Assembly: GCF_002019705.1 (NCBI RefSeq)
Contig: NZ_KV917377.1
Location: 4,155,938 to 4,219,937, forward strand
Length of the DNA: 64,000 nucleotides
From: Shouchella patagoniensis
Lineage (GTDB): Bacteria > Bacillota > Bacilli > Bacillales > Bacillaceae_D
Direction: 5' to 3'
The notes under the pieces: generated by a model
Told to the model about the DNA's origin: nothing
Seen by the model: only the letters and a program-made list of their open reading frames with translations
Database searches by the model: none
In this document: positions 13,225-62,242 of the stretch, one piece after another
Layout of the letters: every line of letters starts with the position of its first letter
How positions within the stretch are numbered: the stretch's first letter is position 1
Made by a program: the position numbers and the translations under genes

Positions 13225-13253
13225 AAAAAGCGCTGCTCTGCAGCGTTTTTTGT
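13225..13253 (+). terminator. Terminator after tctA
   Basis: CGCTG (13231-13235) and CAGCG (13241-13245) with loop CTCTG, extended by A-rich and T-rich flanks and ending in a T6 run. Confidence 0.8.
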
Positions 13254-13374
13254 TTAGTGAGAGAAAAAAGGCTTGAGTAATAACTGGAGAAATGAGTTGC
13301 CAGCAAAAATACAGCTTCTTTGGAGAATAATACGCTTATCGATACGTAAACATTAGAGTCATTTTATTGTAAAG

Positions 13375-13472: not shown

Positions 13473-13647
13473 ATGAATGAAAGCAATCGTTATAGCGTTT
13501 AGAACGGATCTAATGATAGATTTATTTTTTATAATTATATGAAGAGTATTGGAAGGTGCGTACAACGCATAGAGTTGCAGATAGAACAACGTTCAAAAAG
13601 TGGTCCGCTGCTATATTGACACACATATCAATCAATGGGGGTAGGGA

Positions 13648-27979: not shown

Positions 27980-28867
<888 letters not shown>

Positions 28868-34262: not shown

Positions 34263-35987
<1,725 letters not shown>

Positions 35988-45409: not shown

Positions 45410-45448
45410 ATAAAAAGAATTTGTATGGATGAAGGAGACGAGGATGCC

Positions 45449-46351
45449 ATGAATTTTATGACCATTTACATGATCTATGAAACGTATGAACGCCAAGACC
45501 TATTCCCTAGACATACGCTGGCATTATGGAGAGCGCTGTTATTTGTTGCGGCGAATCGAGAAGGGTTGCAGTTTACGCTCGTTAACGTTGATTTAATGAA
45601 AGAAGCTGGATTGAAGAAAGATTTGTTTTTTGCTGCGCGAAAGGAACTTGAAGAGAAGGGTTATCTGCTTGTCGAAAGTGTGCGTGGCAGTCGCTATGCC
45701 ACGTACACACTTTTAGATGGATCATCTAAAAAAGCAACAAAAGCTGTCGGCAAACCCGTCGCTCAACCTGTCGGCAAACCTGTCGGCGAAAAGGGTACGG
45801 AAATGCAGGTGAAGGCTGATGTACCAACGGATAAAGTTGTCGACAAACCTGTCTGTGAACCTGTCGATAAACCTGTCGAGCTTTTGTCCTCACACGCGTC
45901 GCGTACGCATGCGGGGGAGAAAGGGTTTGATTCTAAGTCTTTAAAAGCTTTTAAAACCAAAGATCAAAACCTTGCTACTACTACTCGCGGCGCGGCGATT
46001 CTTGCTCATGCTGAATGTGTGGGCTTTCGGCTCATAAGTGGGAGGATGGTACATGGACTTGAGGAATGGTTAAAGCGAAATTCGTTTCCAGAGAGCTTAT
46101 TAATGGCGAAACGGGCGCTTGATTTGGCAAGTGATGCGAATGCCTTTAACTGGAATTACGTCCAAACGCTTTTGATCACGTGGGAGAAGAAGCAATTTAC
46201 AACGGTTGCTCAGACGATTAAAGAACGGGAAGAGTGGTTTAAACAACGTGCGTATCAGGCAAAAAAACAAGCAACTATGCGGAAAGGGGATCAAGATGAT
46301 GAATCCGGCAAGAGAACATTTTTCGAACAGCATCCATTTGCAGACTTCTGA
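45449..46351 (+). CDS. DnaD-like replication initiator with internal iterons
   Basis: About 300 residues. The N-terminal winged helix (HTLALWRALLFVAANREGLQ) is followed by a Lys-Pro-Val-rich linker (repeating KPVGKPV, residues about 95-150) and a C-terminal DnaD-type domain (GLEEWLKRNSFPESLLMAKR, FNWNYVQTLLITWEKKQF). ATG 45449 with GGAGACGAGG is preferred over 45425. The linker is encoded by two tandem clusters of 12-bp repeats that look like iterons. It overlaps the downstream DnaC-like gene by 56 bases. The family loads the primosome at a phage or plasmid origin. Confidence 0.85.
   Translation: MNFMTIYMIYETYERQDLFPRHTLALWRALLFVAANREGLQFTLVNVDLMKEAGLKKDLFFAARKELEEKGYLLVESVRGSRYATYTLLDGSSKKATKAVGKPVAQPVGKPVGEKGTEMQVKADVPTDKVVDKPVCEPVDKPVELLSSHASRTHAGEKGFDSKSLKAFKTKDQNLATTTRGAAILAHAECVGFRLISGRMVHGLEEWLKRNSFPESLLMAKRALDLASDANAFNWNYVQTLLITWEKKQFTTVAQTIKEREEWFKQRAYQAKKQATMRKGDQDDESGKRTFFEQHPFADF
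45745..45885 (+). repeat. Two clusters of four 12-bp iterons (candidate origin)
   Basis: 45745-45792 and 45838-45885 each hold four head-to-tail 12-mers, consensus TGTCGRCAAACC: for example TGTCGGCAAACC at 45745 and 45769, TGTCGACAAACC at 45838, TGTCGATAAACC at 45862. They are inside the DnaD-like gene, where phage origins recognised by their own initiator are often found. Confidence 0.72.
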
Positions 46352-47147
46352 AGACAATGTGGTCAGTCGGTATACGTGTGAAGGGTGTGAACAAAATGTC
46401 ACTGTTTACAATGTGGAAGCGTACCAAGGACCAAACAAAGGGACTTTTCGTCCTATTCCCTATGGATGCAAGTGTGAAGACCTAGAACTAGGTCGGCTTG
46501 TCTTACGGCGACAGCGAGAGATTCTTGCAAAACAGCGGAAGGAGCTTTTCGACCACCATAGCCTCGTCAACAGCGACTTATTAAAGGCTTCCCTTGATTC
46601 GTATGAGCCCACAACAGAACAACAAACGCTCGCACTCCAAATGTGTCGCCATTATGCGTTTACCTTTTCAATGGACAAGCCGCTTAATCTCCTTTTCAAA
46701 GGGGGCTGTGGAGTGGGCAAAAGCCATCTCGCTATGGGCATTATGAAAGCGTTATTTCGAAAGCGGTTAAACGGGATTTTTATTACAGTGCCCCAGTTGC
46801 TCACGTATTTAAAGCATACGTTTCACGATAAGAAAGTGAGTGAGTACGAATTGATCCAGCGCCTGAAAAATGTGGATTGCCTTGTGCTTGATGATATTGG
46901 CGCTGAGTATACCCGTAACGACCGAGAAAATTGGGCTGTCAGCAAAGTGTTTGAATTAATTGATGCCAGACTTGGCAAACCAATGATTTATACAACGAAC
47001 TTATCAAGCAGGCAATTATACGACCGGCTCGGAAAAAGGAACCATTCCCGTCTTTTGTACAACACAAAACTGATCCGCGTAGACGGAGTCGATTTTCGGG
47101 CCAATGATTTTAATAGGAGGAACGCAGATGAAGAAAGTTATGATTGA
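46296..47147 (+). CDS. DnaC-like helicase loader (AAA+ ATPase)
   Basis: About 283 residues. An N-terminal Cys cluster (YTCEGCEQNVTVYN and YGCKCEDLE) could bind zinc. The AAA+ core has Walker A FKGGCGVGKSH, Walker B CLVLDDIGAE and sensor 1 IYTTNLSSRQL. ATG 46296 follows AAAGGGGA and lies inside the previous gene. With the DnaD-like protein it forms a phage-type helicase loading pair. The amidase gene overlaps its end by 20 bases. Confidence 0.92.
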   Translation: MMNPAREHFSNSIHLQTSEDNVVSRYTCEGCEQNVTVYNVEAYQGPNKGTFRPIPYGCKCEDLELGRLVLRRQREILAKQRKELFDHHSLVNSDLLKASLDSYEPTTEQQTLALQMCRHYAFTFSMDKPLNLLFKGGCGVGKSHLAMGIMKALFRKRLNGIFITVPQLLTYLKHTFHDKKVSEYELIQRLKNVDCLVLDDIGAEYTRNDRENWAVSKVFELIDARLGKPMIYTTNLSSRQLYDRLGKRNHSRLLYNTKLIRVDGVDFRANDFNRRNADEESYD

Positions 47148-47805
47148 CGCAGGACATGGAGGAAGTGATCCAGGTGCAGTTGGGCACGGGATGCAAGAAA
47201 AAAGCTTGGTCCTGATGATCGCGAAAGGGATTGAAGCAGAACTATCAGCATATCAAGTTGAAGTGAAACTAACACGCGCGACGGACCGGATTGTCTCGCT
47301 CACGGACCGAGCCCGGCAAGCAAACACGTGGGGAGCGGACTTGTTTGTTTCGATTCACATCAATGCAGGTGGAGGGACAGGCTTTGAGTCTTTTACACAT
47401 CCAAGCGCTGGTCGAACAACAAAAACGATGCAACAAACCATTCATCAAGCGATCATAAAGCAACTAAACGTGCGAGATCGAGGTCAAAAAACAGCGAATT
47501 TCGCCGTTCTAAGAGAAACAGAGATGCCTGCCGTCTTAACCGAAAGTCTGTTTATCGATCATGTGCAAGACGCAAAGCTGTTGAAAAAACGCAGCACGAT
47601 TGAAGCAATTGTGGCTGGTCACCGTGAAGGCATCGTCAACGCTCTCGCACTCTCGAAAAAACATAAGCTATCTGTGCATGATCAACTGTATCGCGTCATT
47701 GTCGATAACAAACAAGTAGGTGCCTATACAGAAGCGAAAAACGCTGCCAAACAAGTTGAAGCTCACTTTGGTCGCGCGAAATCGATTCGATTGGAGCGTG
47801 TGTAA
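47128..47805 (+). CDS. N-acetylmuramoyl-L-alanine amidase (Amidase_3)
   Basis: 225 residues. The zinc amidase domain has DAGHGGSDPGAVG (His ligand), the Glu in MQEKSLVLMIAK, FVSIHINAGGGTGFES (second His) and LTESLFIDH (catalytic Glu). A short C-terminal SPOR-like piece (YRVIVDNKQVGAYTEAKNAA) follows. AGGAGGAACG precedes ATG 47128. No signal peptide is visible, so release would need a holin or lysis, as for phage endolysins. Confidence 0.9.
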   Translation: MKKVMIDAGHGGSDPGAVGHGMQEKSLVLMIAKGIEAELSAYQVEVKLTRATDRIVSLTDRARQANTWGADLFVSIHINAGGGTGFESFTHPSAGRTTKTMQQTIHQAIIKQLNVRDRGQKTANFAVLRETEMPAVLTESLFIDHVQDAKLLKKRSTIEAIVAGHREGIVNALALSKKHKLSVHDQLYRVIVDNKQVGAYTEAKNAAKQVEAHFGRAKSIRLERV

Positions 47806-49500: not shown

Positions 49501-50193
49501 TTAAGTAAGAGTGGCGTTAACTCTTATTCCAGAATGGTACTCTAATCTTATATGGCTATCTAGTTCCTCAACTAAATCGAAAGCCTCATCAAATTGATCT
49601 AACGACCATTCATCACGTTTCGATTTTAATTCGCTCTTTAAGTAGCTATTAAAATAAAGACCCAGTAGACCACCGTTGTTATTAGCTTTACTGTAAATCC
49701 AAGCATATTCCTTCGGTAAAAGATTTTTATCCTCAATAAGATTTGTTTCATCTAAATTTAACTCAAAGTCAACGACTATTTGAGGAATAACTTCTTCTTT
49801 AATCTTTATGTCTAAGTCTTTTTTCGTCCGTCTATAATAAAGATCAGGTCGTGTTAATTTATCGGTATCAGTACTTCTTTTCGACTGTCTTATAAAGTCT
49901 TTAGCTTGATCTTCGTCAATATTTAGCATTGCTTTTAATTCTAATTTTTTTCGTTTCTCTTCCCGTATTACCGTTTGTGGAGTAATTATTAGTACTCTAC
50001 CTTCTGAAATACCAAAAGGAGCTATTCCCATCAAGCCTGTTTTCCCTATACCGGTTGGTAAGTTAACCATTGCATGCTCATTCTCATTGTCATTAAGAAA
50101 ATGGTTAAATATTGCTTCATAAGCTCTTTCTTGAGGTTCTTTAAGTAAGGCATTACCTTTGATATTTGATGTAGCTTCTAAGAAATAACTCAT
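49501..50193 (-). pseudogene. DEAD/DEAH helicase remnant
   Basis: 230 residues. The N-terminus has a ResIII-like motif I (MVNLPTGIGKTGLMGIAPFG) and motif Ia-like VLIITPQTVIREE. No DEAH box, motif III or VI follows; instead the sequence jumps to a short C-terminal piece. That pattern suggests an internal deletion of a much longer helicase. RBS GGAGG and ATG 50193 are intact, so a truncated protein could be made. It probably belongs to the integrated element. Confidence 0.6.
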
Positions 50194-50721: not shown

Positions 50722-51214
50722 TTAATCCTTGTATAAATTCTTACTAAACATTGCAATAGCCTCTCTGTGAATTGAAGGTAACAAGTGATTATAAGTATCT
50801 AATGTTGTAGTGATACTCGTATGTCCTAATCTCTCCGCCACTACTTTTACCGGAATACCTTGCAAAAACATTAAGGTTGCATGCCTATGCCTCAAATCAT
50901 GAAAGCGAATGGAAGGTACATTAGCATCTTCTTTAAGCTGATACCATTTTCGGTTTAGATTGCGGGGAGTTACATGTGTACCTAAGCTAGTGCAAACAAC
51001 TAAATCATTATCTTTATATTCTCTTCTAGCTCGTTCTTTCTCATATTCAACTCGTGCTTTACGCTTCTGTAATTTACGAACAGTTACTTCATCTAAATCA
51101 ATTGTACGATTAAAGCTAGCTTTTGTTTTCCCATCTGAATTCCCATATGGAGTGTGAGTCACAACAGTACGCAATAACTCTTTTTTAAAGTCGACATCCT
51201 TCCAGAGAGGATAT
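50722..51214 (-). pseudogene. int: Tyrosine recombinase (integrase), C-terminal remnant
   Basis: The catalytic half is intact: PLWKDVDFKKELLRTV (start of the domain, upstream of any start codon), RTIDLDEVTV, IRFHDLRHRHATLMFLQGIP and LGHTSITTTLDTYNHLLP with the R-H-x-x-R-H box and the Tyr nucleophile. The N-terminal arm and core-binding domains are missing and a stop lies just before 51214. This is a truncated ICE/phage integrase and matches the tRNA fragment at 49048. Confidence 0.88.
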
Positions 51215-51229: not shown

Positions 51230-51950
51230 TTAATTATTTTGGATATTCAAGTAATGGATATAGAGTCTTTCTATTTTCGAAATAAAATAAGTAGGATAGG
51301 TGGATGGAGAGTGTCGGTCCAGGAAACTCAGATAATTAACTGCCATGTTAAGAGTTATTATATTTTCGAGTTCGGAGTCAAAATGAAAGTTAGGATTTTT
51401 TTTTATTAAATCTAATGCTTCATAAAATAATTGGTTTGACTTTAAAAAATCGTTTTTAAATCTCAAAGTAATTCCTAAAGAGATGTATATTTTAATATCG
51501 AGAGAGTTAATTTCTCCGTTGAAATCGTTTACTTTTAGTATTGATAAAAATTTTTTCTGCATCGTTAAATCTATTTTCTGTCAAATGAAGCATGCCTTCA
51601 AAAATCATTTGTTGTTTTTTTGAATACGTAGAGTCAATAGTAATGAGCGACTTAAACTCATGAAACATTTTCTTGTACTGGATAAAATTATAGCTGTTAT
51701 AAAGATTATATAGAGAGTCGACGAAAAAGTCGAAATTATCCGGATTTTCCACTTCGAAAAATCTCGTTAAATAGTTCAAACTGACGTTCAGTTTCTTAGC
51801 TATATCATATATAACCTTAATAGTAGGGACAGTACTACCGGATTCAATTTTGCTTATTAAGGATTGATCACAAATGCTTTCAGCTAGTTTTTTTTGAGAA
51901 ATCCCTTTTGATTTTCTTATTTCAGCAATAGCTTTTCCTAAATTATACAT
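51230..51950 (-). pseudogene. PlcR/Rgg-like (RRNPP) quorum regulator, frameshifted
   Basis: ATG 51950 (AGGAGTG upstream) begins an XRE domain (IAEIRKSKGISQKKLAESIC, LISKIESGSTVPTIKV), followed by TPR-like helices (NLYNSYNFIQYKKMFHEFKS, LTENRFNDAEKIF). The frame is lost near 51540-51556 and resumes as INSLDIKIYISLGITLRFKN, LFYEALDLIKKNPNFHF to 51230. The 721-base span has one base too many, most simply in the A6 of the coding strand (51551-51556). Joined, it is about 240 residues, close to PlcR-type regulators. It diverges from the biosynthetic genes and has a perfect PlcR-like box before it. Confidence 0.75.
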
Positions 51951-52125: not shown

Positions 52126-53319
52126 ATGACAAGGTATAAAGAAATTATTGCTAATTCTGATGCTTCTATTTTTCCTTATGAAGATTATATGTTAGAACCG
52201 GTAAAGATTGACCGAGGAAAGCTAAAAGAGTTAAGAGATGCTAGCAAAAAGCTATTAGCCATTTTCTCCAAGTATGTAAAGGAAAAAAAAACGTCTCTGA
52301 TTGAAGGTTCCGGGTTAGAAGCTTTCGAAAAAATTTTACTGTCAGACCAAGAAATAATGGAATTCTTTAGATGGGATGTCATTAAAGACGCAAATGGCAA
52401 TTGGAAGTTTATTGAATTAAATGGGGGCAGTACAGTTGGCGGTTTGGCGGTTTTTAAATTAAAGGACATCTATGAAGGATTAGATAATTATCAAAATTTA
52501 AGTGATCCTAATGCTCTTGTTTGTTGGGGAAAAGCTTTAAAATCACTCATAAAAGGTAAGAATGTTGTATTTGTAGGCGATAAGGATTACCTAGAAGAGA
52601 AATATTCTGTATTGAAAGTTTTAACACGGGAATTAAAGAAACATACCACTTTAGTTTCGATAGCATCGCCAGAACAGTTGATGTCTATTAATAATTACGT
52701 ATATTTAAATGGGGAAAAAGTGGATTTTGTCTACAGACTCTTTACTATCGAAGATGTGAAAAACAACTATTTTTTATATAAGGATCTGTTGAGATCAGTT
52801 CTACTTGATAAGGTAATGATGCCAATGGGTTTTTATCAAAGCGATGTATTAGGGAATAAAAATGCTTTTTCTCTCTTATATGAGTTAGCAGAAAAAAATC
52901 AGCTGGATCACCATGAAAAAAAAGTGATTTATAAATATGTACCTAGAACAATCAATCTAAAAAATGCTTCTTTAGGCTATCTTATGAATAATAGAGAAAA
53001 TTTATTAATTAAATCGGCATTGGGGTATGGAGGAACAAACATTTTCTGTGGTTGGAAATATACCGCTTTAGAATGGGGTTCATTAATTAAAGAGTGTAAT
53101 TCCAGTACACATCAATTTGTTGTACAAGAAAAGATTTTTTTTGATGAGCAAAAAAATGATTACTTTTCTGAACAAAAGATACAAAGCAATCTGATGAACC
53201 TGATTTGGGGAGTATACATCGTTAATGGGCGCTATTCCGGTAGCGTAATTCGCGCAAATATTAAAGGAACAGATTTAATTGGTGGTAATAACGGTTCCAA
53301 AGTAGGGATCATTAATTAG
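52126..53319 (+). CDS. Circularly permuted ATP-grasp enzyme 1
   Basis: 397 residues. The early block DVIKDANGNWKFIELNGGST (Glu and Asn as metal ligands) precedes the nucleotide lobe NLLIKSALGYGGTNIFCGWK, the permuted order seen in glutathionylspermidine-synthetase-like and CP_ATPgrasp proteins. GAGGGGGTG precedes ATG 52126. It is clearly related to the product at 57853, motif for motif. The expected chemistry is amide bond formation through an acyl phosphate. First gene of the eleven-gene operon; the substrate is unknown. Confidence 0.72.
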   Translation: MTRYKEIIANSDASIFPYEDYMLEPVKIDRGKLKELRDASKKLLAIFSKYVKEKKTSLIEGSGLEAFEKILLSDQEIMEFFRWDVIKDANGNWKFIELNGGSTVGGLAVFKLKDIYEGLDNYQNLSDPNALVCWGKALKSLIKGKNVVFVGDKDYLEEKYSVLKVLTRELKKHTTLVSIASPEQLMSINNYVYLNGEKVDFVYRLFTIEDVKNNYFLYKDLLRSVLLDKVMMPMGFYQSDVLGNKNAFSLLYELAEKNQLDHHEKKVIYKYVPRTINLKNASLGYLMNNRENLLIKSALGYGGTNIFCGWKYTALEWGSLIKECNSSTHQFVVQEKIFFDEQKNDYFSEQKIQSNLMNLIWGVYIVNGRYSGSVIRANIKGTDLIGGNNGSKVGIIN

Positions 53320-53333
53320 AAATAGGTGATGTT

Positions 53334-54203
53334 TTGATATTAATTCTCTGTAGAGAGAAAACATTTGACGTTCTAACCCTAGATAAAGAACTAACATCTA
53401 CCCTAAATGTAGATGTACTATCCTTAATGCCCAATGAGCTTTCCTTGGAATTTATGGATCAAAAAAAAATTTCTTTGAGACATAGAGGTGATTTGCTTGA
53501 ACCAGAGTTAATAATCGGTTGGACTTCCTTACATCAAAAAGATAATGGAAACACGCTTTTAAGTATTCTTCGTAAAAATGGATATAAAGTTTTGAATAAC
53601 GATGAGAATCTAGGCTTAGCTCAAAATAAGATACTAAATTCTTCGATCTTAAGAGCATACGGAATACCAAACATACGGACATTCTTAGTTGGGAACCTTA
53701 CAGACGCTGTGAGGATTGCCAGTGAGTTATCTTATCCATTGGTATTGAAGCCTTTAATTGGCGCCAAAGGGGAAGGCATAAGAAAAATTAGTTCTAAAGA
53801 GCAATTAATAGATGAAACAGAAGTTATTTTCTCAAACAACGAAATGATCTGCATGCAAGAGTGTATTAATAAGCCAGAAAGAGATATAAGGGTAAGAGTT
53901 ATTGGTTATAAAGCTGAATTTGCATTTTATCGTTTCGTTGGTCCTGATGGTTTTATAACTAATTTATCCAAAGGAAGCCATTGGGAAGAAGCTCATTTAG
54001 ATGAAACTCTTAGAAGCCTTGCCGAAAAAGCTGCCATTGCATTCAATGCACCAATAGCAGGTGTAGATATAGTTGAAGATATCGACACTGGAGAATTAAA
54101 AGTTATTGAGGTTAATGCTACCCCAGCAATAACTTGGCCTTACGAAAAAACGGTTAAAACTTTAGTTAGCTATGTAGAAACCCTATTAAAAGAGGAGAAC
54201 TGA
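53334..54203 (+). CDS. RimK-type ATP-grasp ligase
   Basis: 289 residues starting at TTG 53334 behind AGGTGATG. ATP-grasp landmarks: LVLKPLIGAKGEGIRKIS (ATP lobe), PERDIRVRVIG, GVDIVEDIDTGELKVIEVNA (metal-binding Glu and Asn). It belongs with LysX/RimK-like ligases that join an amino acid to an acyl or amino-acyl carboxylate with ATP. It begins 14 bases after ligase 1 and is followed by the oxidase after 2 bases. The likely peptide-bond-forming step of the pathway. Confidence 0.85.
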   Translation: MILILCREKTFDVLTLDKELTSTLNVDVLSLMPNELSLEFMDQKKISLRHRGDLLEPELIIGWTSLHQKDNGNTLLSILRKNGYKVLNNDENLGLAQNKILNSSILRAYGIPNIRTFLVGNLTDAVRIASELSYPLVLKPLIGAKGEGIRKISSKEQLIDETEVIFSNNEMICMQECINKPERDIRVRVIGYKAEFAFYRFVGPDGFITNLSKGSHWEEAHLDETLRSLAEKAAIAFNAPIAGVDIVEDIDTGELKVIEVNATPAITWPYEKTVKTLVSYVETLLKEEN

Positions 54204-54205
54204 CA

Positions 54206-54916
54206 ATGAGCATTCAAGAAAATTATATCACTGAAATTAAGGACTTAGTAGAAGAAAATAAAAAGATTACACATCCTTTATACCAAAAAATCATGAGTGG
54301 AAAAGCTGATAAAGAATTATTAAAGAATTTTGTTCTACACCGCTACCATATTAAAAGTTTCTGGACTAGAAATATATCGGCGATTCATTCTAAGACGCCA
54401 GATGTAGAATCTAGAATTGCATTAGCAGAAAATATTTTTGAAGAGGAAACCGGTCAATTAACAAATAGTAAAAGACACTTGGATTTATTTTTTAACTTTG
54501 GCGAGCAATTTGGCTTAACGAAAGAAGAATTAGATGGTTTGGAATTGCTCGAAGAAACAAAAGCTGTCATCGAATGGAATAATAAAGTTTGTGGACCAGA
54601 CCATCACCTAGTTGAAGCGGTTGCTGCCCTTATCATCTACATGGAAGGACAACCTCCCGTTGAATTCAATGGTAAGACTATGAATACTGCAATGAAGGAT
54701 TTGTACAACGTGAATAAAGATGGTATGGATTATTTTACTATTCACAGCAGTCATGAAAACGATGTTGAAGACGATCATGCAGAGGTTGGTTTTAATCTAT
54801 TAAAGAAGTATGCAAATACTTCTGAGTTGAGAGAAAAGTCAATTAAAGCACTTAAGAAGTCTATTGAGGTACGAATGAACCATTTTACAGCTATTCTGGA
54901 AACAGTTAGGGAATAG
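54206..54916 (+). CDS. Heme-oxygenase-like diiron oxidase (HDO/TenA-like)
   Basis: 236 residues, all-helical TenA/PqqC fold. Candidate iron ligands are Glu in FEEETGQLTNSKRHLDLFF, the His in that helix, and HSSHENDVEDDHAEVG near residue 180, the H-x(n)-D-x-x-H pattern of HDO enzymes. AGGAG precedes ATG 54206. HDOs use O2 for N-oxygenation, desaturation or C-C cleavage of amino acids (for example BelK, HrmI, UndA, BesC). The 2Fe-2S protein at the end of the operon could supply electrons. The exact reaction is unknown. Confidence 0.78.
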   Translation: MSIQENYITEIKDLVEENKKITHPLYQKIMSGKADKELLKNFVLHRYHIKSFWTRNISAIHSKTPDVESRIALAENIFEEETGQLTNSKRHLDLFFNFGEQFGLTKEELDGLELLEETKAVIEWNNKVCGPDHHLVEAVAALIIYMEGQPPVEFNGKTMNTAMKDLYNVNKDGMDYFTIHSSHENDVEDDHAEVGFNLLKKYANTSELREKSIKALKKSIEVRMNHFTAILETVRE

Positions 54917-54932
54917 ATCATATTTTAGAGAA

Positions 54933-54959
54933 CCTTCCTTCGATTATATCGAAGGAAGG
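54933..54959 (+). other. Intra-operon mRNA hairpin
   Basis: CCTTCCTTCGAT and its inverse ending GGAAGG make a near-perfect stem around 54933-54959 between the oxidase and lyase genes. It has no U-tract, and the next RBS follows at once. It is possibly an mRNA processing or stability element. Confidence 0.6.
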
Positions 54960-54979
54960 CATTAGGAGGAGGGAATAAA

Positions 54980-55912
54980 TTGATATTATTAGATGTTACT
55001 TTAAGAGACGGGGGCTATCTAAATCAATTCAACTTTAAATATGACTCTATTCATGAGATTCTCCTGCATTTGGAGAATACAAATGTAGATTACGTAGAGT
55101 TGGGCTATTATAAAGGGCCAGCTTCAGGAGGAGAAGGATTAGGCGTAACTGCCAATATCAACTTGGACGTTTTAGAGTATTTTAAGGAACTCTTCCCCAA
55201 AATAAAATTTGTCATTATGTTACATCCCAAAAATGTATCCATTGAAGAACTAGAAGTGTTAAGTAATAAACCAATTGATCTAATAAGAGTTTGTATTACC
55301 GAAGCTTCATTAGACCAGGGACTAGAGTATGTAAAAAGATTGAAACGGATGAATCACAAGGTTAGCGCAAACTTCACACGCGCCACATGGATAGATCCAC
55401 ATATAATAGCTTCGTATATGAAACAGGCAGAGAATAATGGTGCAGATATTGTTTATTTTGCTGATTCTAATGGAAGCATGTATCCAGATAAAGTTGCAGA
55501 ATACGTAAAGACTATTCTCCAGTATGTTAATATCCCAGTGGGGTTTCATCCTCATAATAATTTGAATTTAGCTCTTGCCAATTCAATTACTGCTATTCAA
55601 CACGGAGCTAAATATGTTGATTCTTCCTTAAATGGTCTAGGTAAAGGAGGAGGAAATTTAGAGACGGAAATTTTCATCTCCTATTTGGAAAGAACAAATC
55701 AAAATCAAAAGTTTGATTTACTTAAAGCATTTGAAGGTAAAGATTATATAATAAAAGAGTTCTCTTATAGTTCGGACTACCTATTAAATCTATTATTTGG
55801 TATAAAAGATTATTCGATGGACTATATGAAGGTAGTTACAAAAGAATGTGAAAGTAATAACTTTTCTGTAAAAGATTATATTTATCATAATAATATCAAA
55901 GGTTGTTCTTAA
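54980..55912 (+). CDS. DRE-TIM metallolyase (HMGL/4-hydroxy-2-oxovalerate aldolase-like)
   Basis: 310 residues. LLDVTLRDGGYLNQF carries the Arg-Asp catalytic pair, VELGYYKGPASGGEG follows, IVYFADSNGSMYPDKV and GFHPHNNLNLALANSI supply the HxH metal ligands, and GLGKGGGNLETEIF comes later. It starts at TTG 54980 behind TAGGAGGAGGG. The family makes or breaks C-C bonds next to a 2-oxo acid (aldol or Claisen type). Here it may build the carbon skeleton of the amino acid made by the aminotransferase downstream. The stop shares a base with the next start. Confidence 0.83.
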   Translation: MILLDVTLRDGGYLNQFNFKYDSIHEILLHLENTNVDYVELGYYKGPASGGEGLGVTANINLDVLEYFKELFPKIKFVIMLHPKNVSIEELEVLSNKPIDLIRVCITEASLDQGLEYVKRLKRMNHKVSANFTRATWIDPHIIASYMKQAENNGADIVYFADSNGSMYPDKVAEYVKTILQYVNIPVGFHPHNNLNLALANSITAIQHGAKYVDSSLNGLGKGGGNLETEIFISYLERTNQNQKFDLLKAFEGKDYIIKEFSYSSDYLLNLLFGIKDYSMDYMKVVTKECESNNFSVKDYIYHNNIKGCS

Positions 55913-56934
55913 TGAGCGAACACAAATACCTAGAGCTTGAAGATCATCTAAGTTTCTTTCAACGTGGCAAGAAATATGGAGATCATTTCCGATATGAAAT
56001 TAATGGGTTCTTGTCTGATAATTTAGCGAGGATAAACAAAGTACGAAAGACACCAATTTTATACACTGATGCAATGCATTACGTGAAGAAATGTATACCT
56101 TTCATTGAAAGAGAAATACCTAATATTGCTGAGGAGATATTAGGGTTAAGCAGAGGTGCGCAAATACCTTATGAGGAAGCAATGCTACTACAGCTAAGAA
56201 GAGAACTTATAAGTGATGATATCCTTGACTGTACAGCTTTCTCAAACTTTTTGGAGAATGGAAATAGTTTTTTAGCGGAGAATGTGGATCTACCAGGTAA
56301 CCTTAGTGATTTAGGGTGTATCGTTAAGACAAAACAAAAAAATGCTCCTGATATATTAATGTATACCCATATCGGCTTATTAGGCTATTTAGGTATGAAC
56401 TCTTCCGGTTTAGCTATTGGAATAAATATGGTAATGTCAGACGGGTGGGGCCCTGGCGTGCCCCCCTATTTAATTATCAAGGAACTCCTATTAAAGTGTC
56501 ACAACACAATAGATTGTATTAATAGAATAAAAAGCTTTTCAAGAACCTCATCCAGAAATTTCATGCTGGTTGATAACTTTAATCAATTCTGTGTTGAAAT
56601 GACTCCTTCTGATTTTGAAATTGTTAATAATTCCATGAATGTGCACACGAATCATTACTTGAATTATAAAATGAAAAAACATGAATCATTAGAAAAAAAA
56701 AGCAACTCGGTTAATAGACATAACTTTGTTTTAAGCAAGCTAGAACATGGGGTTACAAAAGACAATATTATAGAAATATTAACGGATCATGAACATGACA
56801 TTTGTTTGCATTCTAATTCTAATGCGAATAACTCAGAAACCATTGGGTCAGTTATTATGTATCCATCAAGTCAAGAGATGTCGGTAAACTTTGGAAAACC
56901 TTGTAAGAAGAATTTTATAACTTTTAAATTATAG
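55912..56934 (+). CDS. C45 family Ntn-hydrolase/acyltransferase (isopenicillin N acyltransferase-like)
   Basis: About 340 residues. The likely nucleophile is Cys107 in DILDCTAFSNF, with self-cleavage between Asp106 and Cys107 as in AAT-type precursors. Further blocks are FLAENVDLPG and MYTHIGLLGYLGMNSSGLAI. ATG 55912 overlaps the previous stop by one base; the two are coupled. The family moves or removes acyl groups on amino groups. In this pathway it could acylate, or cleave a protecting acyl or aminoacyl group from, the ATP-grasp product. Confidence 0.83.
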   Translation: MSEHKYLELEDHLSFFQRGKKYGDHFRYEINGFLSDNLARINKVRKTPILYTDAMHYVKKCIPFIEREIPNIAEEILGLSRGAQIPYEEAMLLQLRRELISDDILDCTAFSNFLENGNSFLAENVDLPGNLSDLGCIVKTKQKNAPDILMYTHIGLLGYLGMNSSGLAIGINMVMSDGWGPGVPPYLIIKELLLKCHNTIDCINRIKSFSRTSSRNFMLVDNFNQFCVEMTPSDFEIVNNSMNVHTNHYLNYKMKKHESLEKKSNSVNRHNFVLSKLEHGVTKDNIIEILTDHEHDICLHSNSNANNSETIGSVIMYPSSQEMSVNFGKPCKKNFITFKL

Positions 56935-56947
56935 GAGGCGCCGCACC

Positions 56948-57847
56948 ATGCTAGCATCAATAAATGGAAAAATCATTGATTATGAAAACGCAAGGATTCA
57001 TCTTAACTCACTTAGTATGAAATACGGATCCAGTGTTTTTGAAGGCATAAGAGCTTACAAAGATAAAAAAAAGGACGGAGTTAATATTATTCAATTGAAT
57101 GAGCACATTAGGCGTTTCTTTGAATCGATGAGGTTGGTAAAGTTAGAATGTGACTATAGCAGAGAGCAGGTCAAAGATTTTGTTATAAGCCTAATCAACC
57201 AAAATAAAATCAATACAGATATATATATTAGATTAGCTGCTTCAGTTTTTGAAGAGGGTGAGATATACACTAGAGGCAAAGCATCTATTACTGTAACCAT
57301 AAAACCTAAAAAAGAAGTGCTTCTAAAACCCAAAATAAACGTTATGGTTAGTAGTTGGAGAAGAATTAATGATAACGATATGCCGCCGAGAATAAAGAGT
57401 ATTTCCAATTATCAAAATAGCAGGTTGGCTATGTTGGAAGCGAGAGATTATGGTTTTGATAACAGCATCATACTTAATGCTAACGGTGGTGTAGCCGAGA
57501 GCCCGACTGCTTCATTATTTATGGTTAAAGATGGTGTATTGAATACTCCTAGGATAACAGATGGAATTCTAGAAAGTATTACTAGAACACTTATTATTAA
57601 TTTAGCAAAAATAAGTGAAATTAAGGTTGTTGAAAGAGAAATAGATCGTACTGAACTTTATTTGGCTGATGAACTTTTTATAGTAGGAACTGGCGCAGAG
57701 TTGATATCCATAGGAACTATAGATGGTTACCAATTTGAATCCAACAACAGTTCAATTTATGAAGTATTGAATAACAAACATCGTTCATTGGTCCGTGGAC
57801 TAGACAATTACAATATATATAGAACTTTTATAAATTCAGTGGAGTGA
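56948..57847 (+). CDS. Class IV aminotransferase (branched-chain type)
   Basis: 299 residues of the IlvE/DAAT fold-type IV family. LSMKYGSSVFEGIRAY is at the N-terminus, the PLP Lys is in PRIKSISNYQNSRLA, then NANGGVAESPTASLFMV. GGAGGCG precedes ATG 56948. It probably aminates a 2-oxo acid generated by the DRE-TIM enzyme, giving a non-standard amino acid. A housekeeping role is unlikely in this setting. The next gene follows after 5 bases. Confidence 0.88.
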   Translation: MLASINGKIIDYENARIHLNSLSMKYGSSVFEGIRAYKDKKKDGVNIIQLNEHIRRFFESMRLVKLECDYSREQVKDFVISLINQNKINTDIYIRLAASVFEEGEIYTRGKASITVTIKPKKEVLLKPKINVMVSSWRRINDNDMPPRIKSISNYQNSRLAMLEARDYGFDNSIILNANGGVAESPTASLFMVKDGVLNTPRITDGILESITRTLIINLAKISEIKVVEREIDRTELYLADELFIVGTGAELISIGTIDGYQFESNNSSIYEVLNNKHRSLVRGLDNYNIYRTFINSVE

Positions 57848-57852
57848 TAAAA

Positions 57853-59205
57853 ATGGCCGATATGATCAAAGAAGTGAGTTATATTAACTATTTTAATGAA
57901 CACAAAGAAAAGATAAAAGCAGAGATTAATGATTTAGAAAAAGCTTTAAAACAAACTGGATATCATTATAAAAATACAGAATTCCAATTATCACCCAAAA
58001 TTTCAATTGTAGATCAAGAGTTTCGTAATTATGCTAAAGAAATGTTCGAGGATTTGATTACGATCTTAAATAAACTTAATAGTGCATATTTGAATGACGA
58101 AAATATACAATCTTTTTATTCTCTAGATGATTTTAGTCAGTGTATTCTTACAGAAACAGCTCATAAAAAAAATGAAATTTTGGTTTCTCGTTTTGATTGT
58201 TTAATCAGTGAAGAAACAGGTGATATTAATGTAATAGAAAACAATACTGATTGTCCGGCAGGTTTAATTTTTACAGGTAGAATAAACAAAATAATAAAGA
58301 GTATGAACACATCAAAGAGTTATTTAAGTAATAGAGATATTGTCTTTGAGAATATTGATCGTGATAACTTTTTCTACGAACAATTACTCAGTATATATCA
58401 AAAGAAGCGGCCAGGTGATCAGGTGAAACACATTGTTGTCCTCCAGAAAGATGCATCACCAAGTTTAGAGATGTTAACCTTTAAGGAAATGTATTCAGGA
58501 TTGGACGTAGTTGTAAACATCTGCGATTTAAAAGATTTAGTAGAAAAGGAAGGGTTTCTGTATTATCAAGAGAAGAAAATCGATCTAATCTGGAATAAGA
58601 TAAATACAGCCAATTTCTTTGAATATTACCAATCAGCTGAAGCGAAGGACAAAGTTATTAGTTTGATAAATACAGAGACGGTTGTAATTAATAATTTTCA
58701 ATCAAGACTTATATCTGAGAATAAACTGACTTCAGCAGTTTTATCTGATCCGAAATTTCATTACTTGTTTTCTGTAAAGGAGAGGGGGCTCTTACGAAGG
58801 CATATTCCTTGGTCTAGAAAACTAGAAGATACTACGACAACACACAGTGGTGAGCAAATTGAATTAATAGATTTTGTTCTGAAATATAAGGACGATCTTG
58901 TTTTGAAAGCTCCCTATGACATAAGAGGAGATGGTGTTACAATAGGAACATCAACATCACAAAAAATATGGGATAAATTAGTAAAAAGGAAAATGAACAA
59001 AGGTTATACAATACAAAAATATATAGAACCAAAAAAAACATACGTTCCCAATGGGGATTATAGTGCTACTGTTCAGATCCCCTTCAGTTTAGATGCTTTC
59101 ATTTTAAATTCTATCTTTTGTGGATTCGGTTCGAAGGTTAGTAGTCAGAAAAAAATGAATATCTTTCAGGGGGGCAGTAAACATGTTATTTTAACTGAGA
59201 GGTGA
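57853..59205 (+). CDS. Circularly permuted ATP-grasp enzyme 2
   Basis: About 450 residues. SRFDCLISEETGDINVIENN matches the metal-ligand block of enzyme 1, IDLIWNKINTANFFEYYQSA matches its central segment, and LVLKAPYDIRGDGVTIGTST the ATP lobe. ATG 57853 is 9 bases past GGAG; GTG 57844 overlaps the previous gene. It is a divergent paralogue of the first gene product. Two such enzymes plus one RimK-type ligase imply at least two, perhaps three, ATP-driven condensations. Confidence 0.72.
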   Translation: MADMIKEVSYINYFNEHKEKIKAEINDLEKALKQTGYHYKNTEFQLSPKISIVDQEFRNYAKEMFEDLITILNKLNSAYLNDENIQSFYSLDDFSQCILTETAHKKNEILVSRFDCLISEETGDINVIENNTDCPAGLIFTGRINKIIKSMNTSKSYLSNRDIVFENIDRDNFFYEQLLSIYQKKRPGDQVKHIVVLQKDASPSLEMLTFKEMYSGLDVVVNICDLKDLVEKEGFLYYQEKKIDLIWNKINTANFFEYYQSAEAKDKVISLINTETVVINNFQSRLISENKLTSAVLSDPKFHYLFSVKERGLLRRHIPWSRKLEDTTTTHSGEQIELIDFVLKYKDDLVLKAPYDIRGDGVTIGTSTSQKIWDKLVKRKMNKGYTIQKYIEPKKTYVPNGDYSATVQIPFSLDAFILNSIFCGFGSKVSSQKKMNIFQGGSKHVILTER

Positions 59206-59210
59206 TGAAT

Positions 59211-60017
59211 ATGAAACAAGAAGAATATAACGTATTTTCGGAATATAACAACGAAGGGAACCCTGCAACCGTAATCCCTATAAGGTTGAGTGAGTCTGAG
59301 AATTATAACCTGTTAGATATCGCGAAGGAAAATAAGGGGGTATCAGTCTTTGTTACCCTTCATGATCTTATAGTAAAAGATGTATTAATTTATTCTTCTT
59401 CAGAAAGAATTAACTTTTGTGGTCATGGAATACTTGCTTTGTATAGGTTTTTAAATAGCAACTGTATAAATTGTGATCATCTAACATTGGGCGATAAGAA
59501 GGTATCATTTTCTGTTACTGAAGATAAATATTGGTTTTCTACTGATTCTGCAAATATAAGGAAGGCAGAATTAGATGTAGATTTGGTGGCAGAGGCATTT
59601 GGATTACATGCATCCGATTTCGTGGAACCAGAATTCTATGAAGCGAGTATTGGGAGTCCCAAATTGCTTGTGGAACTAGAGGATCTAAACACTATAAAAA
59701 AGGTTAACCCTCATTTTGAGCTTATAAAGAGAATATCTCTTGACTATAAGTTTAACGGGTTCTTCCTTTTTACAAGGGATACTATAGATCCTTCATCAGA
59801 TTTTTTTGCACGTAGCTTCAATCCGTTAAGTGGTATTCAAGAAGATATTGCTACCGGAGTTGCTGCTGGAGCATTGGGACTAGTGTTGAAAAAGCGTTAT
59901 GGAGATCTCCAAGAGTTCAAAGTAGAGCAGGGGCATTTATTTGATAATAGATGTAAAATTTTTATCAAAGAGGTAAACGGGTCAATATTTGTTGGAGGGC
60001 ATGTAACTCCGCGATAA
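59211..60017 (+). CDS. PhzF family isomerase/epimerase
   Basis: About 268 residues. NEGNPATVIPIRLS carries the catalytic Glu, INFCGHGILALYRFL is the GHxT-type block, and QEDIATGVAAGALGLVL is the second-half signature. GAGAGG precedes ATG 59211. PhzF-type enzymes shift a proton on an amino or oxo acid (isomerisation, epimerisation or beta-gamma shift). It probably adjusts stereochemistry or double-bond position in the pathway intermediate. Confidence 0.88.
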   Translation: MKQEEYNVFSEYNNEGNPATVIPIRLSESENYNLLDIAKENKGVSVFVTLHDLIVKDVLIYSSSERINFCGHGILALYRFLNSNCINCDHLTLGDKKVSFSVTEDKYWFSTDSANIRKAELDVDLVAEAFGLHASDFVEPEFYEASIGSPKLLVELEDLNTIKKVNPHFELIKRISLDYKFNGFFLFTRDTIDPSSDFFARSFNPLSGIQEDIATGVAAGALGLVLKKRYGDLQEFKVEQGHLFDNRCKIFIKEVNGSIFVGGHVTPR

Positions 60018-60050
60018 ATATAAGTACAAAACTAGGGGGAATTTAGTAAA

Positions 60051-60695
60051 ATGGAAAGTTACGTAACAGAGTTGGGGCAACTAACTACAAGTGCAATATC
60101 AGATGCGCTAGATGTACTAGGTTACAATGGGGGAATAAAAAATTTTCGTATTTATTCATGCGATAAGAGGATAATTGGTCCGGTTTTTACAGTTGAGTTT
60201 GCAGACAGTAGTGAGCCAGCCAAAGCAGCAGATTATATAGAAGAAGTTGATCCAGGAACTGTAGTAATGATCACAAACAATAACAGAGAGGACTGTACAG
60301 TCTGGGGGGACCTTCTTTCTTTATATGCTAAGAATAAGGGGATAACTGGGACTATTGTTTACGGTTGTTTTAGAGACATAGAAGAAATTAAAAATATAGA
60401 TTATCCCATATACTCAACTGGCCTATATATGAAATCAGGTAAGAATCGTGTCAAGTTAAAGTCCATTCAAGAACCTATAGTGATTGAAGGAACAAAAATT
60501 AATCCCGACGATTTTGTTGTAGTTGATACATCTGGTCTTTTGCATATACCAAAGGAATTAATTGATAAGGTGATACCTCTTGCGCAAGAAATAGAGGTAG
60601 TGGAAAATAGAATTAGAATTGACATTGCTTCGGGTAAAGAGATTAGAGATTCACGTGAAACTCACGATTATAACCAATTTGCTTTAAGAATGTAA
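60051..60695 (+). CDS. RraA-like lyase/decarboxylase
   Basis: 214 residues: TSAISDALDVLGYNGGIKNF, AADYIEEVDPGTVVMITNNN, WGDLLSLYAKNKGITGTIVY followed by GCFRDIEEI. The G-D-L and R-D elements are the metal- and substrate-binding residues of the HMG/CHA aldolase and oxaloacetate decarboxylase group of RraA-like proteins. GGGGGAA precedes the ATG. It is more likely an aldolase or decarboxylase on a pathway oxo acid than an RNase E regulator in this setting. Confidence 0.83.
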   Translation: MESYVTELGQLTTSAISDALDVLGYNGGIKNFRIYSCDKRIIGPVFTVEFADSSEPAKAADYIEEVDPGTVVMITNNNREDCTVWGDLLSLYAKNKGITGTIVYGCFRDIEEIKNIDYPIYSTGLYMKSGKNRVKLKSIQEPIVIEGTKINPDDFVVVDTSGLLHIPKELIDKVIPLAQEIEVVENRIRIDIASGKEIRDSRETHDYNQFALRM

Positions 60696-60699
60696 CATA

Positions 60700-61896
60700 A
60701 TGGATACAAACACTTCTAAGGCAAATCTCCAATTAATATTAACGGGAAATACGATTAATTTCATTGGTATTGGTTTTCAAGGCATAGCTATATCGTGGGC
60801 TCTATTACAATTAACGGGTAGTCCATTGACAATTGGAATTATGCTGTTTATAAGAGCATTACCTGCAATACTTTTAGTTACATTAGCAGGTTCTTTAGTC
60901 GACAAGGTAAATAGAAAATTAATTAGTTTGCTCAGTATATTCGTTCAGGGTGTGACAATGCTTATTTTTGCAATGATGGTCTTGTTCTGGCCTGTTGATT
61001 TTAATCTAATGATCCTCTATTTAATATCCTTGTTGACAGCTGTGGCTAATACCTTTTATTATCCAAGCAGCAAATCTTTAATACAAGAATTTACTTCTAA
61101 GAAGAATTTACTTAAAGCAAATGCAAAAATTGAAAGCTTGAGTCAAGTCGGGATGATTATTGGGACCGCTATTGGTGGTATAGTAGTTACAATATTCGAT
61201 CCTAAAGGATATATATTTATTAACGGTGTTATATATCTATTGTCAGCCCTATGTTTCGCTGCTTTGAGATATCAAACCAGAGAAAATAAAAACAAAATTG
61301 AAAAGAACCCTAAATTAAAAACAGGTGGAGGATTTAGCTATATTAAGCAGGAACGAGCGTTGTTCGTTTGCGTTTTATTTTTAGCAGTTCCTAGCCTTGT
61401 AGTACAAACAAACAATGTACTCATTGGTGCTTTTACTTATATTGAACTTGGTTTAAACGCACGACACTATAGCTATATTAATTTAAGTTATGGAATAGGA
61501 GCTTCCTTGGGAGGATTCATTCTCCTAAAACTAAACAAAGATAAGATTCCAGATGTTCGAATTATTTTTATAGGCTTAGTATGCATAGGTCTATTTGAGA
61601 TTGTTTTTGGTTTCAACAAACAAATACTAATAGCTGTCATTAGTATGTTTATTGTGGGTTTTGCTATATCCTTAAGCAGATCTTTGTTGATGTCATTAGT
61701 AATGAAAAAAACTGAATCTAATATTGCTGGAAGAGTACATTCTATAGTTAATCTTTTCAATTCTATAATTATGCTTTTTGCAGGTTTAACATTGGGATTA
61801 TTAGCAGAATTGACTCAATTCTCCGTGGTGTTCTCTTTAATCGGAATAACTGTAATTCTAATTGCTATTTTGGGGACTCGTTATCTAAAACAATAA
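60700..61896 (+). CDS. MFS exporter (EntS-like MFS_3)
   Basis: 398 residues with 12 membrane helices; FIRALPAILLVTLAGSLVDK, VNRK and later ANTFYYPSSKSLIQEFTSKK are typical of EntS/MFS_3 drug and siderophore exporters. It starts 4 bases after the RraA-like stop with little RBS, so it is probably coupled to it. It most likely exports the pathway product and gives self-protection. Confidence 0.87.
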   Translation: MDTNTSKANLQLILTGNTINFIGIGFQGIAISWALLQLTGSPLTIGIMLFIRALPAILLVTLAGSLVDKVNRKLISLLSIFVQGVTMLIFAMMVLFWPVDFNLMILYLISLLTAVANTFYYPSSKSLIQEFTSKKNLLKANAKIESLSQVGMIIGTAIGGIVVTIFDPKGYIFINGVIYLLSALCFAALRYQTRENKNKIEKNPKLKTGGGFSYIKQERALFVCVLFLAVPSLVVQTNNVLIGAFTYIELGLNARHYSYINLSYGIGASLGGFILLKLNKDKIPDVRIIFIGLVCIGLFEIVFGFNKQILIAVISMFIVGFAISLSRSLLMSLVMKKTESNIAGRVHSIVNLFNSIIMLFAGLTLGLLAELTQFSVVFSLIGITVILIAILGTRYLKQ

Positions 61897-61918
61897 ATTA
61901 AAGGAGAAACCTTTACTT

Positions 61919-62242
61919 ATGATACCAGGAGCAAACAGACACCTCCTTATTTGTAATGGGAAGAAATGTATGCAAAAAGGAGCTGCTGAACTTACTACTG
62001 CAATTAGGAAGGAATTAATAAAGGCCAATTTGAATAAAAAAGTATTTACTTCGCGCACATTCTGTAATGGCGAGTGCTCTTCAGGGTGTATTGTTATTAG
62101 TTACCCAGATGGTAATTGGTATGGAAATGTCGACGAAGACAACAGCATAGACATCATAAATTCTCTTGTAGATGATAAAATAGATGTTGATACTGATATT
62201 CTCTATACTTTTGAGAAAAAACAATTTTTGGAAATGGATTAA
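61919..62242 (+). CDS. Thioredoxin-like 2Fe-2S ferredoxin
   Basis: 107 residues. Cys12 and Cys17 (CNGKKC) with Cys49, Cys53 and Cys57 (CNGECSSGC) give the ligand set of thioredoxin-like 2Fe-2S proteins, followed by SYPDGNWYGNV. AAAGGAG lies 12 bases upstream. As the last gene of the operon it is a candidate electron donor for the diiron oxidase. Confidence 0.83.
   Translation: MIPGANRHLLICNGKKCMQKGAAELTTAIRKELIKANLNKKVFTSRTFCNGECSSGCIVISYPDGNWYGNVDEDNSIDIINSLVDDKIDVDTDILYTFEKKQFLEMD

What the first reader, a model, noticed from the sequence alone, without database searches (positions are those of the whole stretch)
52126..62242. Unrecognised NRPS-independent biosynthetic operon built on three ATP-grasp enzymes
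Eleven co-directional genes with minimal spacing: CP-ATP-grasp 1, RimK-type ligase, HDO diiron oxidase, DRE-TIM lyase, C45 acyltransferase, class IV aminotransferase, CP-ATP-grasp 2, PhzF isomerase, RraA-like lyase, MFS exporter, 2Fe-2S protein. Each family is recognisable, but I know no described pathway with this set. The logic would be C-C bond formation, isomerisation, transamination to a non-standard amino acid, O2-dependent modification, ATP-grasp condensation, acyl trimming and export. The AT-rich composition and the mobile-element setting point to recent transfer.
Basis: partly seen in the sequence, partly recalled or inferred. Interest (0 to 1): 0.95.

Follow-up and report, generated by a model that had tools for sequence, protein, structure and literature searches.

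The report
Conserved unexplained peptide-making gene cluster
A run of ten genes, found together in six bacterial genomes from three genera, looks like the recipe for a small modified peptide made without the usual large assembly-line enzymes, and no published pathway that matches it was found.

Summary
In detail: eleven co-directional, tightly packed ORFs of the stated families lie at 52126-62242. The conserved core is A-J; the 2Fe-2S gene K is in the window only. The other five loci carry a fourth ATP-grasp (X) that the window lacks. The HDO oxidase is the most conserved protein (window 65-69% to the others; the other nine 27-46%) and has an unusual metal motif, H-x7-E-x2-H instead of H-x3-D/E-x2-H. 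Best reading: an NRPS-free route to a short, HDO-oxidised, exported peptide with a non-standard amino acid. It works like the mangotoxin pathway (PMC13185094) but lacks MboB and MboE and adds amino-acid-building enzymes. HDO + ATP-grasp clusters are a described kind, so this is a new variant. Caveat: in the window's PhzF protein the expected catalytic Glu position is Arg, so the window copy may be altered. Product unknown; acquisition likely, 'recent' transfer not shown.

The parts
52126..53319 (+). A: circularly permuted ATP-grasp ligase 1 (397 aa)
   Evidence: CP_ATPgrasp_2 19.6 bits, below its cut-off of 32; 6 of 6 orthologues hit it, best 3.3e-9; profile homologous to G; orthologue in 5 of 5 other loci, 27-29% id
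53334..54203 (+). B: RimK/LysX-type ATP-grasp ligase (289 aa)
   Evidence: TIGR00768 145.0 bits, cut-off 143.4; 40-42% id to orthologues
54206..54916 (+). C: heme-oxygenase-like diiron oxidase, HDO (236 aa)
   Evidence: Haem_oxygenas_2 1.2e-25; AF2 model pLDDT 91.4, best PDB match CADD TMq 0.80; E80, H91, E147, H180, E188, H191 invariant in 6 of 6
54743..54778 (+). third metal motif of C, H180-x7-E188-x2-H191; four residues longer than in 26 of 26 other HDOs aligned
   Evidence: model confidence only 58 over residues 181-190
54980..55912 (+). D: DRE-TIM metallolyase, 4-hydroxy-2-oxoacid aldolase-like (310 aa)
   Evidence: HMGL-like 9.5e-34; RDGG and HxH in 6 of 6
55903..56934 (+). E: C45 autoproteolytic acyltransferase/hydrolase (343 aa)
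   Evidence: NF040521 198.8 bits, cut-off 85; Cys of the C-[TS]-A motif in 6 of 6
56948..57847 (+). F: class IV (branched-chain-like) aminotransferase (299 aa)
   Evidence: PF01063 4.3e-41; Lys of RIK[SC] in 6 of 6
57844..59205 (+). G: circularly permuted ATP-grasp ligase 2, GSP_synth-like (453 aa)
   Evidence: PF03738 30.6 bits, cut-off 29.3; 36% id to orthologues; 21-25% relatives in other gene neighbourhoods
59202..60017 (+). H: PhzF-family isomerase/epimerase (271 aa)
   Evidence: TIGR00654 83.1 bits, cut-off 76.2; EDxATG in 6 of 6, but the Glu three residues before FCGH in the other five is Arg in the window, with a Glu one residue earlier
60051..60695 (+). I: RraA-like class II aldolase/decarboxylase (214 aa)
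   Evidence: PF03737 1.1e-33; R-D motif in 6 of 6
60700..61896 (+). J: MFS transporter, probably an exporter (398 aa)
   Evidence: MFS_1 5.9e-36, MFS_3 7.2e-15; orthologue in 5 of 5 other loci
61919..62242 (+). K: thioredoxin-like 2Fe-2S ferredoxin (107 aa); window only, not part of the conserved core
   Evidence: PF01257 24.5 bits, cut-off 24.8; no match in the fetched stretches of the other 5 loci; Cys 12, 17, 49, 53, 57

Best explanation
Genes A-J are one biosynthetic cluster for a small exported peptide containing a non-proteinogenic amino acid, made without NRPS or ribosome. Inferred steps: D and I (two metal-dependent 2-oxoacid aldolase/decarboxylase enzymes) with the isomerase H build a branched or hydroxylated 2-oxo acid from central metabolites. 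F transaminates it to the amino acid. The ATP-grasp ligases B, G and A (plus X in the other five loci) form amide bonds to it. The HDO C uses O2 on the amino acid or peptide to make the reactive group; this is the step held most constant across the family. E removes or transfers an acyl or aminoacyl group, perhaps a protecting residue added by B. J exports the product. Shown here: families, synteny in six genomes, conserved catalytic motifs (with one exception in the window's H), purifying selection within g179. Not shown: every substrate, the order of steps, the product. Because A, H and the presence of X vary while C barely does, I expect a family of related peptides with one common oxidised unit and different flanking residues.
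For: All ten genes together in 6 of 6 genomes in which a close HDO orthologue (E<=1e-30) was found, in two gene orders. dN/dS between L078 and L081 is 0.034 (C) to 0.212 (A). Motifs kept in 6 of 6 for C, D, E, F, I and for EDxATG of H. C identity window to others 65-69%, against 27-46% for the other nine genes. X is an ATP-grasp with a sub-threshold L-amino-acid-ligase C-terminal domain hit. J hits MFS_1 and MFS_3. Precedent: the mangotoxin HDO acts on a tripeptide built by two ATP-grasp ligases (PMC13185094; outline, abstract and passages). Sporadic presence: 1 of 13 genomes of the window's genus.
Against: No product, expression or assay data. No substrate can be read from sequence: D and I score far below the equivalog models of any named aldolase, and F is below the branched-chain equivalog cut-offs. 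The window's H has Arg where the other five have the Glu before FCGH. A's structure could not be modelled (pLDDT 49.7). dN/dS between the closest g179 pairs reaches 0.37-0.46 for H and 0.29 for A, on little synonymous change. In the g179 loci the cluster sits in conserved flanks with flank-like GC, which would also suit a housekeeping cofactor pathway. The tests rest on six loci, four of them close relatives.
Confidence: 0.68

Rival explanations
1. The cluster makes a cofactor, a glutamate-tailed small molecule or a metal carrier rather than an antimetabolite peptide. B would add glutamate, as its relatives for methanopterin and F420 do, and C would act like its nearest solved relatives, which make p-aminobenzoate or PQQ.
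For: B's best equivalog hits are MptN and LysX, though far below their cut-offs; C's nearest solved relatives are CADD and PqqC; in g179 the cluster has conserved flanks (by eye in L078 dps and suf genes) and flank-like GC.
Against: Sporadic occurrence, an MFS gene and 3-4 different ligases suit a secreted product better; the pABA-synthase residues are not all kept.
Confidence: 0.15
2. A catabolic operon: D and I are aldolases of meta-cleavage type pathways and J is an importer.
For: D and I resemble 4-hydroxy-2-oxovalerate and 4-carboxy-4-hydroxy-2-oxoadipate aldolases.
Against: Three to four ATP-grasp ligases and a C45 enzyme have no place in such a route; no ring-cleaving dioxygenase or hydratase family was hit among A-K; D and I are far below the named-aldolase cut-offs.
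Confidence: 0.05
3. The window copy is a decaying or altered foreign remnant, functional elsewhere but not here.
For: It lacks X, which is absent from the whole genome beyond short 27% matches; the window's H has Arg at the expected catalytic Glu; the regulator upstream of A is split between two frames; AT-rich DNA and a clipped integrase nearby.
Against: All ten core frames are uninterrupted, and the motifs of C, D, E, F and I are kept. Raised from 0.10 to 0.12 after rechecking H; the main reading was lowered from 0.70 to 0.68 for the same reason.
Confidence: 0.12

Closest known systems
Mangotoxin pathway, mboABCDEF (PMC13185094)
   Same: An HDO beside ATP-grasp amino-acid ligases and no NRPS; a short peptide oxidised by the HDO (shown there, inferred here).
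   Different: No flavin/2Fe-2S reductase like MboB and no deiminase like MboE among A-K; the ligases include two circularly permuted ATP-grasps and a RimK type; five extra enzymes (D, E, F, H, I); a profile search of PDB with the six cluster HDOs listed CADD and PqqC first and no MboA, BesC or UndA at E<=1 (whether MboA's 9YPI is in that copy was not checked).
CADD / PabS self-sacrificing p-aminobenzoate synthases
   Same: Nearest solved relatives of C (E 3.6e-15; TMq 0.80); Tyr27 position kept.
   Different: Tyr43 position (my numbering from the alignment) is Phe in 6 of 6 and Lys152 position is Arg in 5 of 6; third metal motif four residues longer; TIGR04305 88.2 bits against a cut-off of 200.
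Bacilysin and similar BacD-type dipeptide pathways (recalled)
   Same: ATP-grasp ligation of an unusual amino acid plus an MFS exporter in bacilli (recalled).
   Different: X of the g179 locus scores 19.7 bits against the BacD model cut-off of 850, and the window has no X.
Gene neighbourhoods with G-like CP-ATP-grasps in Mesorhizobium, Bradyrhizobium, Pantoea, Photorhabdus, Pseudomonas, Amycolatopsis
   Same: 21-25% relatives of G; in the annotated Pantoea record beside other ATP-grasp ligases and an MFS gene.
   Different: None of the 14 loci L011-L024 has C, D, E, F, H, I or J homologues at E<=0.01 within the fetched flanks; most of these loci were not annotated further.

Membership tests
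HDO superfamily | heme-oxygenase fold | tested here: met
   AF2 pLDDT 91.4; Foldseek to CADD, PqqC, UndA, BesC, probability 1.00
HDO superfamily | three His and three carboxylate ligands in canonical spacing | tested here: inconclusive
   six candidate ligands invariant in 6 of 6, but the last triad is H-x7-E-x2-H against H-x3-D/E-x2-H in 26 of 26 others; the model is weak there
HDO superfamily | metal-dependent O2 activation | not testable with these tools
   needs protein
CADD/PabS pABA synthase | sacrificed Tyr27, essential Tyr43 and Lys152 | tested here: not met
   Y26 kept in 6 of 6, F42 in 6 of 6, Lys position Arg in 5 of 6 and Lys in the window; requirement from PMC11965152 passages, which name Tyr27, Lys152 and NePabS Tyr25, Tyr41, Lys159. 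Pairing Tyr41 with CADD Tyr43 and F42 is my reading of the alignment
BesC 4-chloro-allylglycine synthase | NCBIfam equivalog score | tested here: not met
   17.2 bits, cut-off 500
[quoted passage not shown]
   C beside A, B and G in 6 of 6 loci
Mangotoxin-type HDO + ATP-grasp cluster | dedicated reductase MboB and deiminase MboE | tested here: not met
   no such families hit among A-K; K is a bare ferredoxin in the window only
RimK alpha-L-glutamate ligase family (B) | TIGR00768 cut-off | tested here: met
   145.0 against 143.4 bits
Circularly permuted ATP-grasp (A) | Pfam gathering score | tested here: not met
   19.6 against 32 bits; 6 of 6 orthologues hit the family, best 3.3e-9, and A aligns with G at E 1.7e-27, so it probably works like one
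GSP_synth-like CP-ATP-grasp (G) | Pfam gathering score | tested here: met
   30.6 against 29.3 bits
PhzF family (H) | TIGR00654 cut-off; catalytic Glu (recalled) before FCGH | tested here: inconclusive
   83.1 against 76.2 bits; Glu position is Arg in the window and Glu in the other five
4-hydroxy-2-oxovalerate aldolase (D) | TIGR03217 equivalog cut-off | tested here: not met
   145.3 against 286 bits; the broad family PF00682 is met
Branched-chain aminotransferase (F) | NF005146 / TIGR01122 equivalog cut-off | tested here: not met
   249.3 against 279 and 232.7 against 245.55 bits; PF01063 is met

The most novel reading that the evidence does not exclude
The HDO of this cluster is a new functional class: its third metal-binding helix carries four extra residues, which changes the diiron site, and it performs an oxidation not seen in known HDOs on an amino acid that the cluster itself builds from 2-oxo acids, giving a family of peptide antibiotics with one shared, undescribed warhead across Bacilli.
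Probability: 0.3. Interest if true: 0.8.

Novelty: new variant of a known kind. Interest (0 to 1): 0.62.

Why it matters
About a dozen HDOs have validated functions, out of more than 10,000 sequences (PMC13108848, section 4). A compact, ten-gene, NRPS-free cluster conserved across three genera is an easily cloned way to find a new one together with its substrate pathway and exporter. The natural experiment of six orthologous clusters, one lacking a ligase, may let the constant oxidised unit be told apart from the variable peptide part.

Tried and rejected
Searching with G first: 14 genome loci and 10 plasmid records have G relatives. None of the 14 loci shares the rest of the cluster. Of the plasmid neighbourhoods fetched, one search found only A- and G-type matches, plus weak J- and B-like matches in Streptomyces BHT-5-2 (L009). 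A and G against 299 genomes of the order: one other, weak hit each; A's hit (L004) looks by eye like a different ATP-grasp gene pair, G's was not read. HDO in plasmids: only 4 records, 24-26%. Viral contig scans with G, the G alignment A2 and the two-HDO alignment A3: nothing. A D + I pair in a Legionella adelaidensis plasmid operon with a cyanophycin-synthetase-like ATP-grasp: D and I are 32-37% identical but no other gene matched at E<=1e-3, so it is kept as a lead only. Streptomyces plasmid loci with A-like proteins: different gene sets by their annotation in L007 and L071; L009 and L072 carry no annotation. The CADD (pABA synthase) reading of C was rejected on residues. A structure of A was tried and is too poor to use. 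Direct repeats that could be attachment sites: only short chance-like pairs.
Full report
What is there. Eleven ORFs on the + strand fill 52126-62242 with gaps of -10 to +63 bases. Ten open frames of 200 codons or more occur in that strand, against none in 100 base-shuffled copies. Families: A circularly permuted (CP) ATP-grasp 1, B RimK-type ATP-grasp, C HDO, D DRE-TIM (HMGL-like) lyase, E C45 acyltransferase, F class IV aminotransferase, G CP-ATP-grasp 2, H PhzF, I RraA-like, J MFS, K 2Fe-2S ferredoxin. A is the weakest single assignment: 19.6 bits against a cut-off of 32. All 6 of 6 orthologues nevertheless hit the same family at E<=0.01 (best 3.3e-9), and the profile of A matches that of G over 396 columns (probability 99.8, E 1.7e-27). 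No convincing solved relative was found by sequence for A (best E 0.058) or G (none at E<=1), and the AlphaFold model of A is unusable (pLDDT 49.7).

Is the set conserved? G and A found no orthologue in 299 genomes drawn from the order beyond the genome itself; each had one other, weak hit. The HDO found none in the other 12 of 13 genomes of the genus. In 398 genomes of the class it found one strong relative, G405 (E 6.9e-105, 66% identity); 26 more genomes had weaker matches, the best 5.6e-21. In G405's own genus no other of 7 genomes had a strong match. With an alignment of the two HDOs I then searched 15 genomes of G405's order (only G405 strong), 39 and 59 of two other orders (0 hits at E<=1e-35 and 1e-30; these two draws held no positive control), 398 of the phylum (only the own genome) and 392 of a further order, where 4 genomes, all of one genus (g179), matched at E about 1e-137. 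These draws overlap, so the counts are not additive. All five loci outside the window carry all ten genes A-J. Order is A-B-C-D-E-F-G-H-I-X-J in G405 and H-A-B-C-D-E-F-G-I-X-J in g179. X is a fourth ATP-grasp (416 and 396 aa in L053 and L078) with a sub-threshold L-amino-acid-ligase C-terminal domain hit. It is absent from the window cluster, and the whole window genome has only two short 27% matches to it. K has no counterpart in the fetched stretches of the five loci.

Are the genes under selection? Between L078 and L081 (dS 0.71-0.95) dN/dS is 0.034 for C, 0.085-0.153 for B, D, E, F, G, I and J, and 0.21 for A and H. The two closer pairs (dS 0.04-0.16) give 0 to 0.46, highest for H. Expected catalytic motifs are kept in 6 of 6 orthologues for the six HDO ligand candidates, RDGG and HxH of D, the Cys of E, the Lys of F, EDxATG of H and R-D of I. 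One result goes against an intact window copy: the Glu three residues before FCGH in H, present in the other five, is Arg in the window, with a Glu one residue earlier. The roles of these residues in D, E, F, H and I are recalled from family knowledge, not tested.

The HDO. It is 65-71% identical between the window, G405 and L078, while the other nine genes are at 27-61% in the same three comparisons (27-46% for the window against either). A tree of 32 HDO rows puts the six cluster proteins on one side of a branch (98/97). Three rows are flagged there as long: L051, L043 and the window's own HDO, so finer relations are unsure. The fold is a confident heme-oxygenase bundle (pLDDT 91.4), closest to CADD, then PqqC, UndA and BesC. 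The last metal motif is H180-x7-E188-x2-H191 in 6 of 6, against H-x3-D/E-x2-H in 26 of 26 other HDOs aligned, several of them near copies, and in CADD (alignment printed). The model has no helix from residue 181 to 188 and low confidence there (58 for residues 181-190), so whether H180 is still a ligand is open. Of the residues that p-aminobenzoate synthases need (PMC11965152, passages), Tyr27 is kept, the Tyr43 position is Phe in 6 of 6, and the Lys152 position is Arg in 5 of 6; a pABA-synthase role is therefore not supported.

How it probably works. The 2026 mangotoxin paper (PMC13185094; outline, abstract and passages) shows the closest worked example: two ATP-grasp ligases make a tripeptide, the HDO MboA oxidises its last residue to an alkyne with the help of the reductase MboB, and MboE hydrolyses the guanidinium. 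That paper reports 1447 HDOs near an ATP-grasp ligase and at least 25 unique clusters of that kind (its Figure S2C, which I could not open). The present cluster works like that in outline but adds D, F, H and I, which fit the building of a 2-oxo acid and its transamination, and E, which fits removal or transfer of an acyl or aminoacyl group. It has no MboB or MboE. All substrates and the order of steps are inference. The contrast between a nearly fixed HDO and faster-changing A, H and J, with X present in five of six loci, suggests one shared oxidised unit in variable peptides.

Mobility. GC is 33% in the cluster against 41% in the first 48 kb of the window. A clipped tyrosine-recombinase gene (50722-51174), a helicase-like piece (49501-50193), and DnaD- and DnaC-like genes lie upstream. 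G405's copy lies on a 13.8 kb contig whose first ORF (3-272) and last ORFs (12531-13724) look to me like transposase pieces; that is a reading by eye, not a search. In g179 the cluster has GC of 0.51-0.54 against flanks of 0.49-0.52, and flanks conserved across all four genomes; the flanking genes of L078 look by eye like mtnA/mtnK and dps on one side and sufC/sufD on the other. Movement between lineages is therefore likely; recency in the window is not shown, since no close relative of the window copy was found.

Literature. Searches for papers holding at least 4 of ATP-grasp, PhzF, heme oxygenase-like, RraA and biosynthetic gene cluster, at least 3 of RraA, 4-hydroxy-2-oxovalerate aldolase, ATP-grasp, PhzF and biosynthetic gene cluster, and at least 4 of ATP-grasp, Paenibacillus, biosynthetic gene cluster, aldolase and branched-chain aminotransferase returned 0. 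One search listed 8 papers and one search listed 9 of 10; from titles and abstract starts only, none appears to describe this set. Searches were broader or aimed at HDOs; brought up the mangotoxin paper. Only open-licence papers are held, so this is not proof of absence. The HDO review PMC13108848 was seen in outline and sections 4, 10 and 11.

Verdict. A real, conserved biosynthetic cluster that I did not find described, of a kind that has begun to be described; the enzyme to watch is its HDO.

Noticed in passing
window 51230-51950 (- strand): Divergent regulator beside gene A: an HTH_3 piece (51507-51950) and a TPR-like piece with a sub-threshold hit to the PrgX C-terminal region (51230-51562) lie in different frames, like a split quorum-sensing (RNPP-type) regulator.
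   Followed up: partly
window 50722-51174 (- strand): C-terminal part of a tyrosine recombinase/phage integrase, 150 aa, next to the cluster; its N-terminal part was not seen.
   Followed up: partly
window 45425-47805: DnaD-domain protein, DnaC/IstB-like ATPase and N-acetylmuramoyl-L-alanine amidase in a row, like a prophage or mobile-element module.
   Followed up: partly
window 34263-35987 and 28025-28867: Two long collagen-like (G-x-T repeat) proteins, probably spore-surface or exosporium proteins by eye.
   Followed up: no
window 3-442: Two SAM riboswitches on opposite strands, with ABC-transporter and mtnK/mtnA-like genes downstream on the + strand (by eye). In L078 mtnA/mtnK-like genes lie about 1 kb from the cluster, here about 46 kb away; probably chance.
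   Followed up: no
window 59202-60017: PhzF-like protein H has Arg where the five orthologues have the Glu before FCGH, with a Glu one residue earlier; a changed reaction or a damaged enzyme.
   Followed up: no
L010 13892-19156: Legionella adelaidensis plasmid operon with a D-like aldolase and an I-like RraA protein beside a cyanophycin-synthetase-like ATP-grasp and an isopropylmalate-type dehydrogenase: the D + I pair may be a reusable module.
   Followed up: partly
L005 8910-20577: Pantoea agglomerans plasmid genes with a G-like CP-ATP-grasp, ThiF, TauD, CapA, ATP-grasp and MFS genes; may be another NRPS-free peptide cluster.
   Followed up: no
L021 10001-12123: Amycolatopsis thermalba: a G-like ligase match is followed within about 150 bases by a B-like RimK match (25% identity), the same ligase pair in an otherwise different setting.
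   Followed up: no
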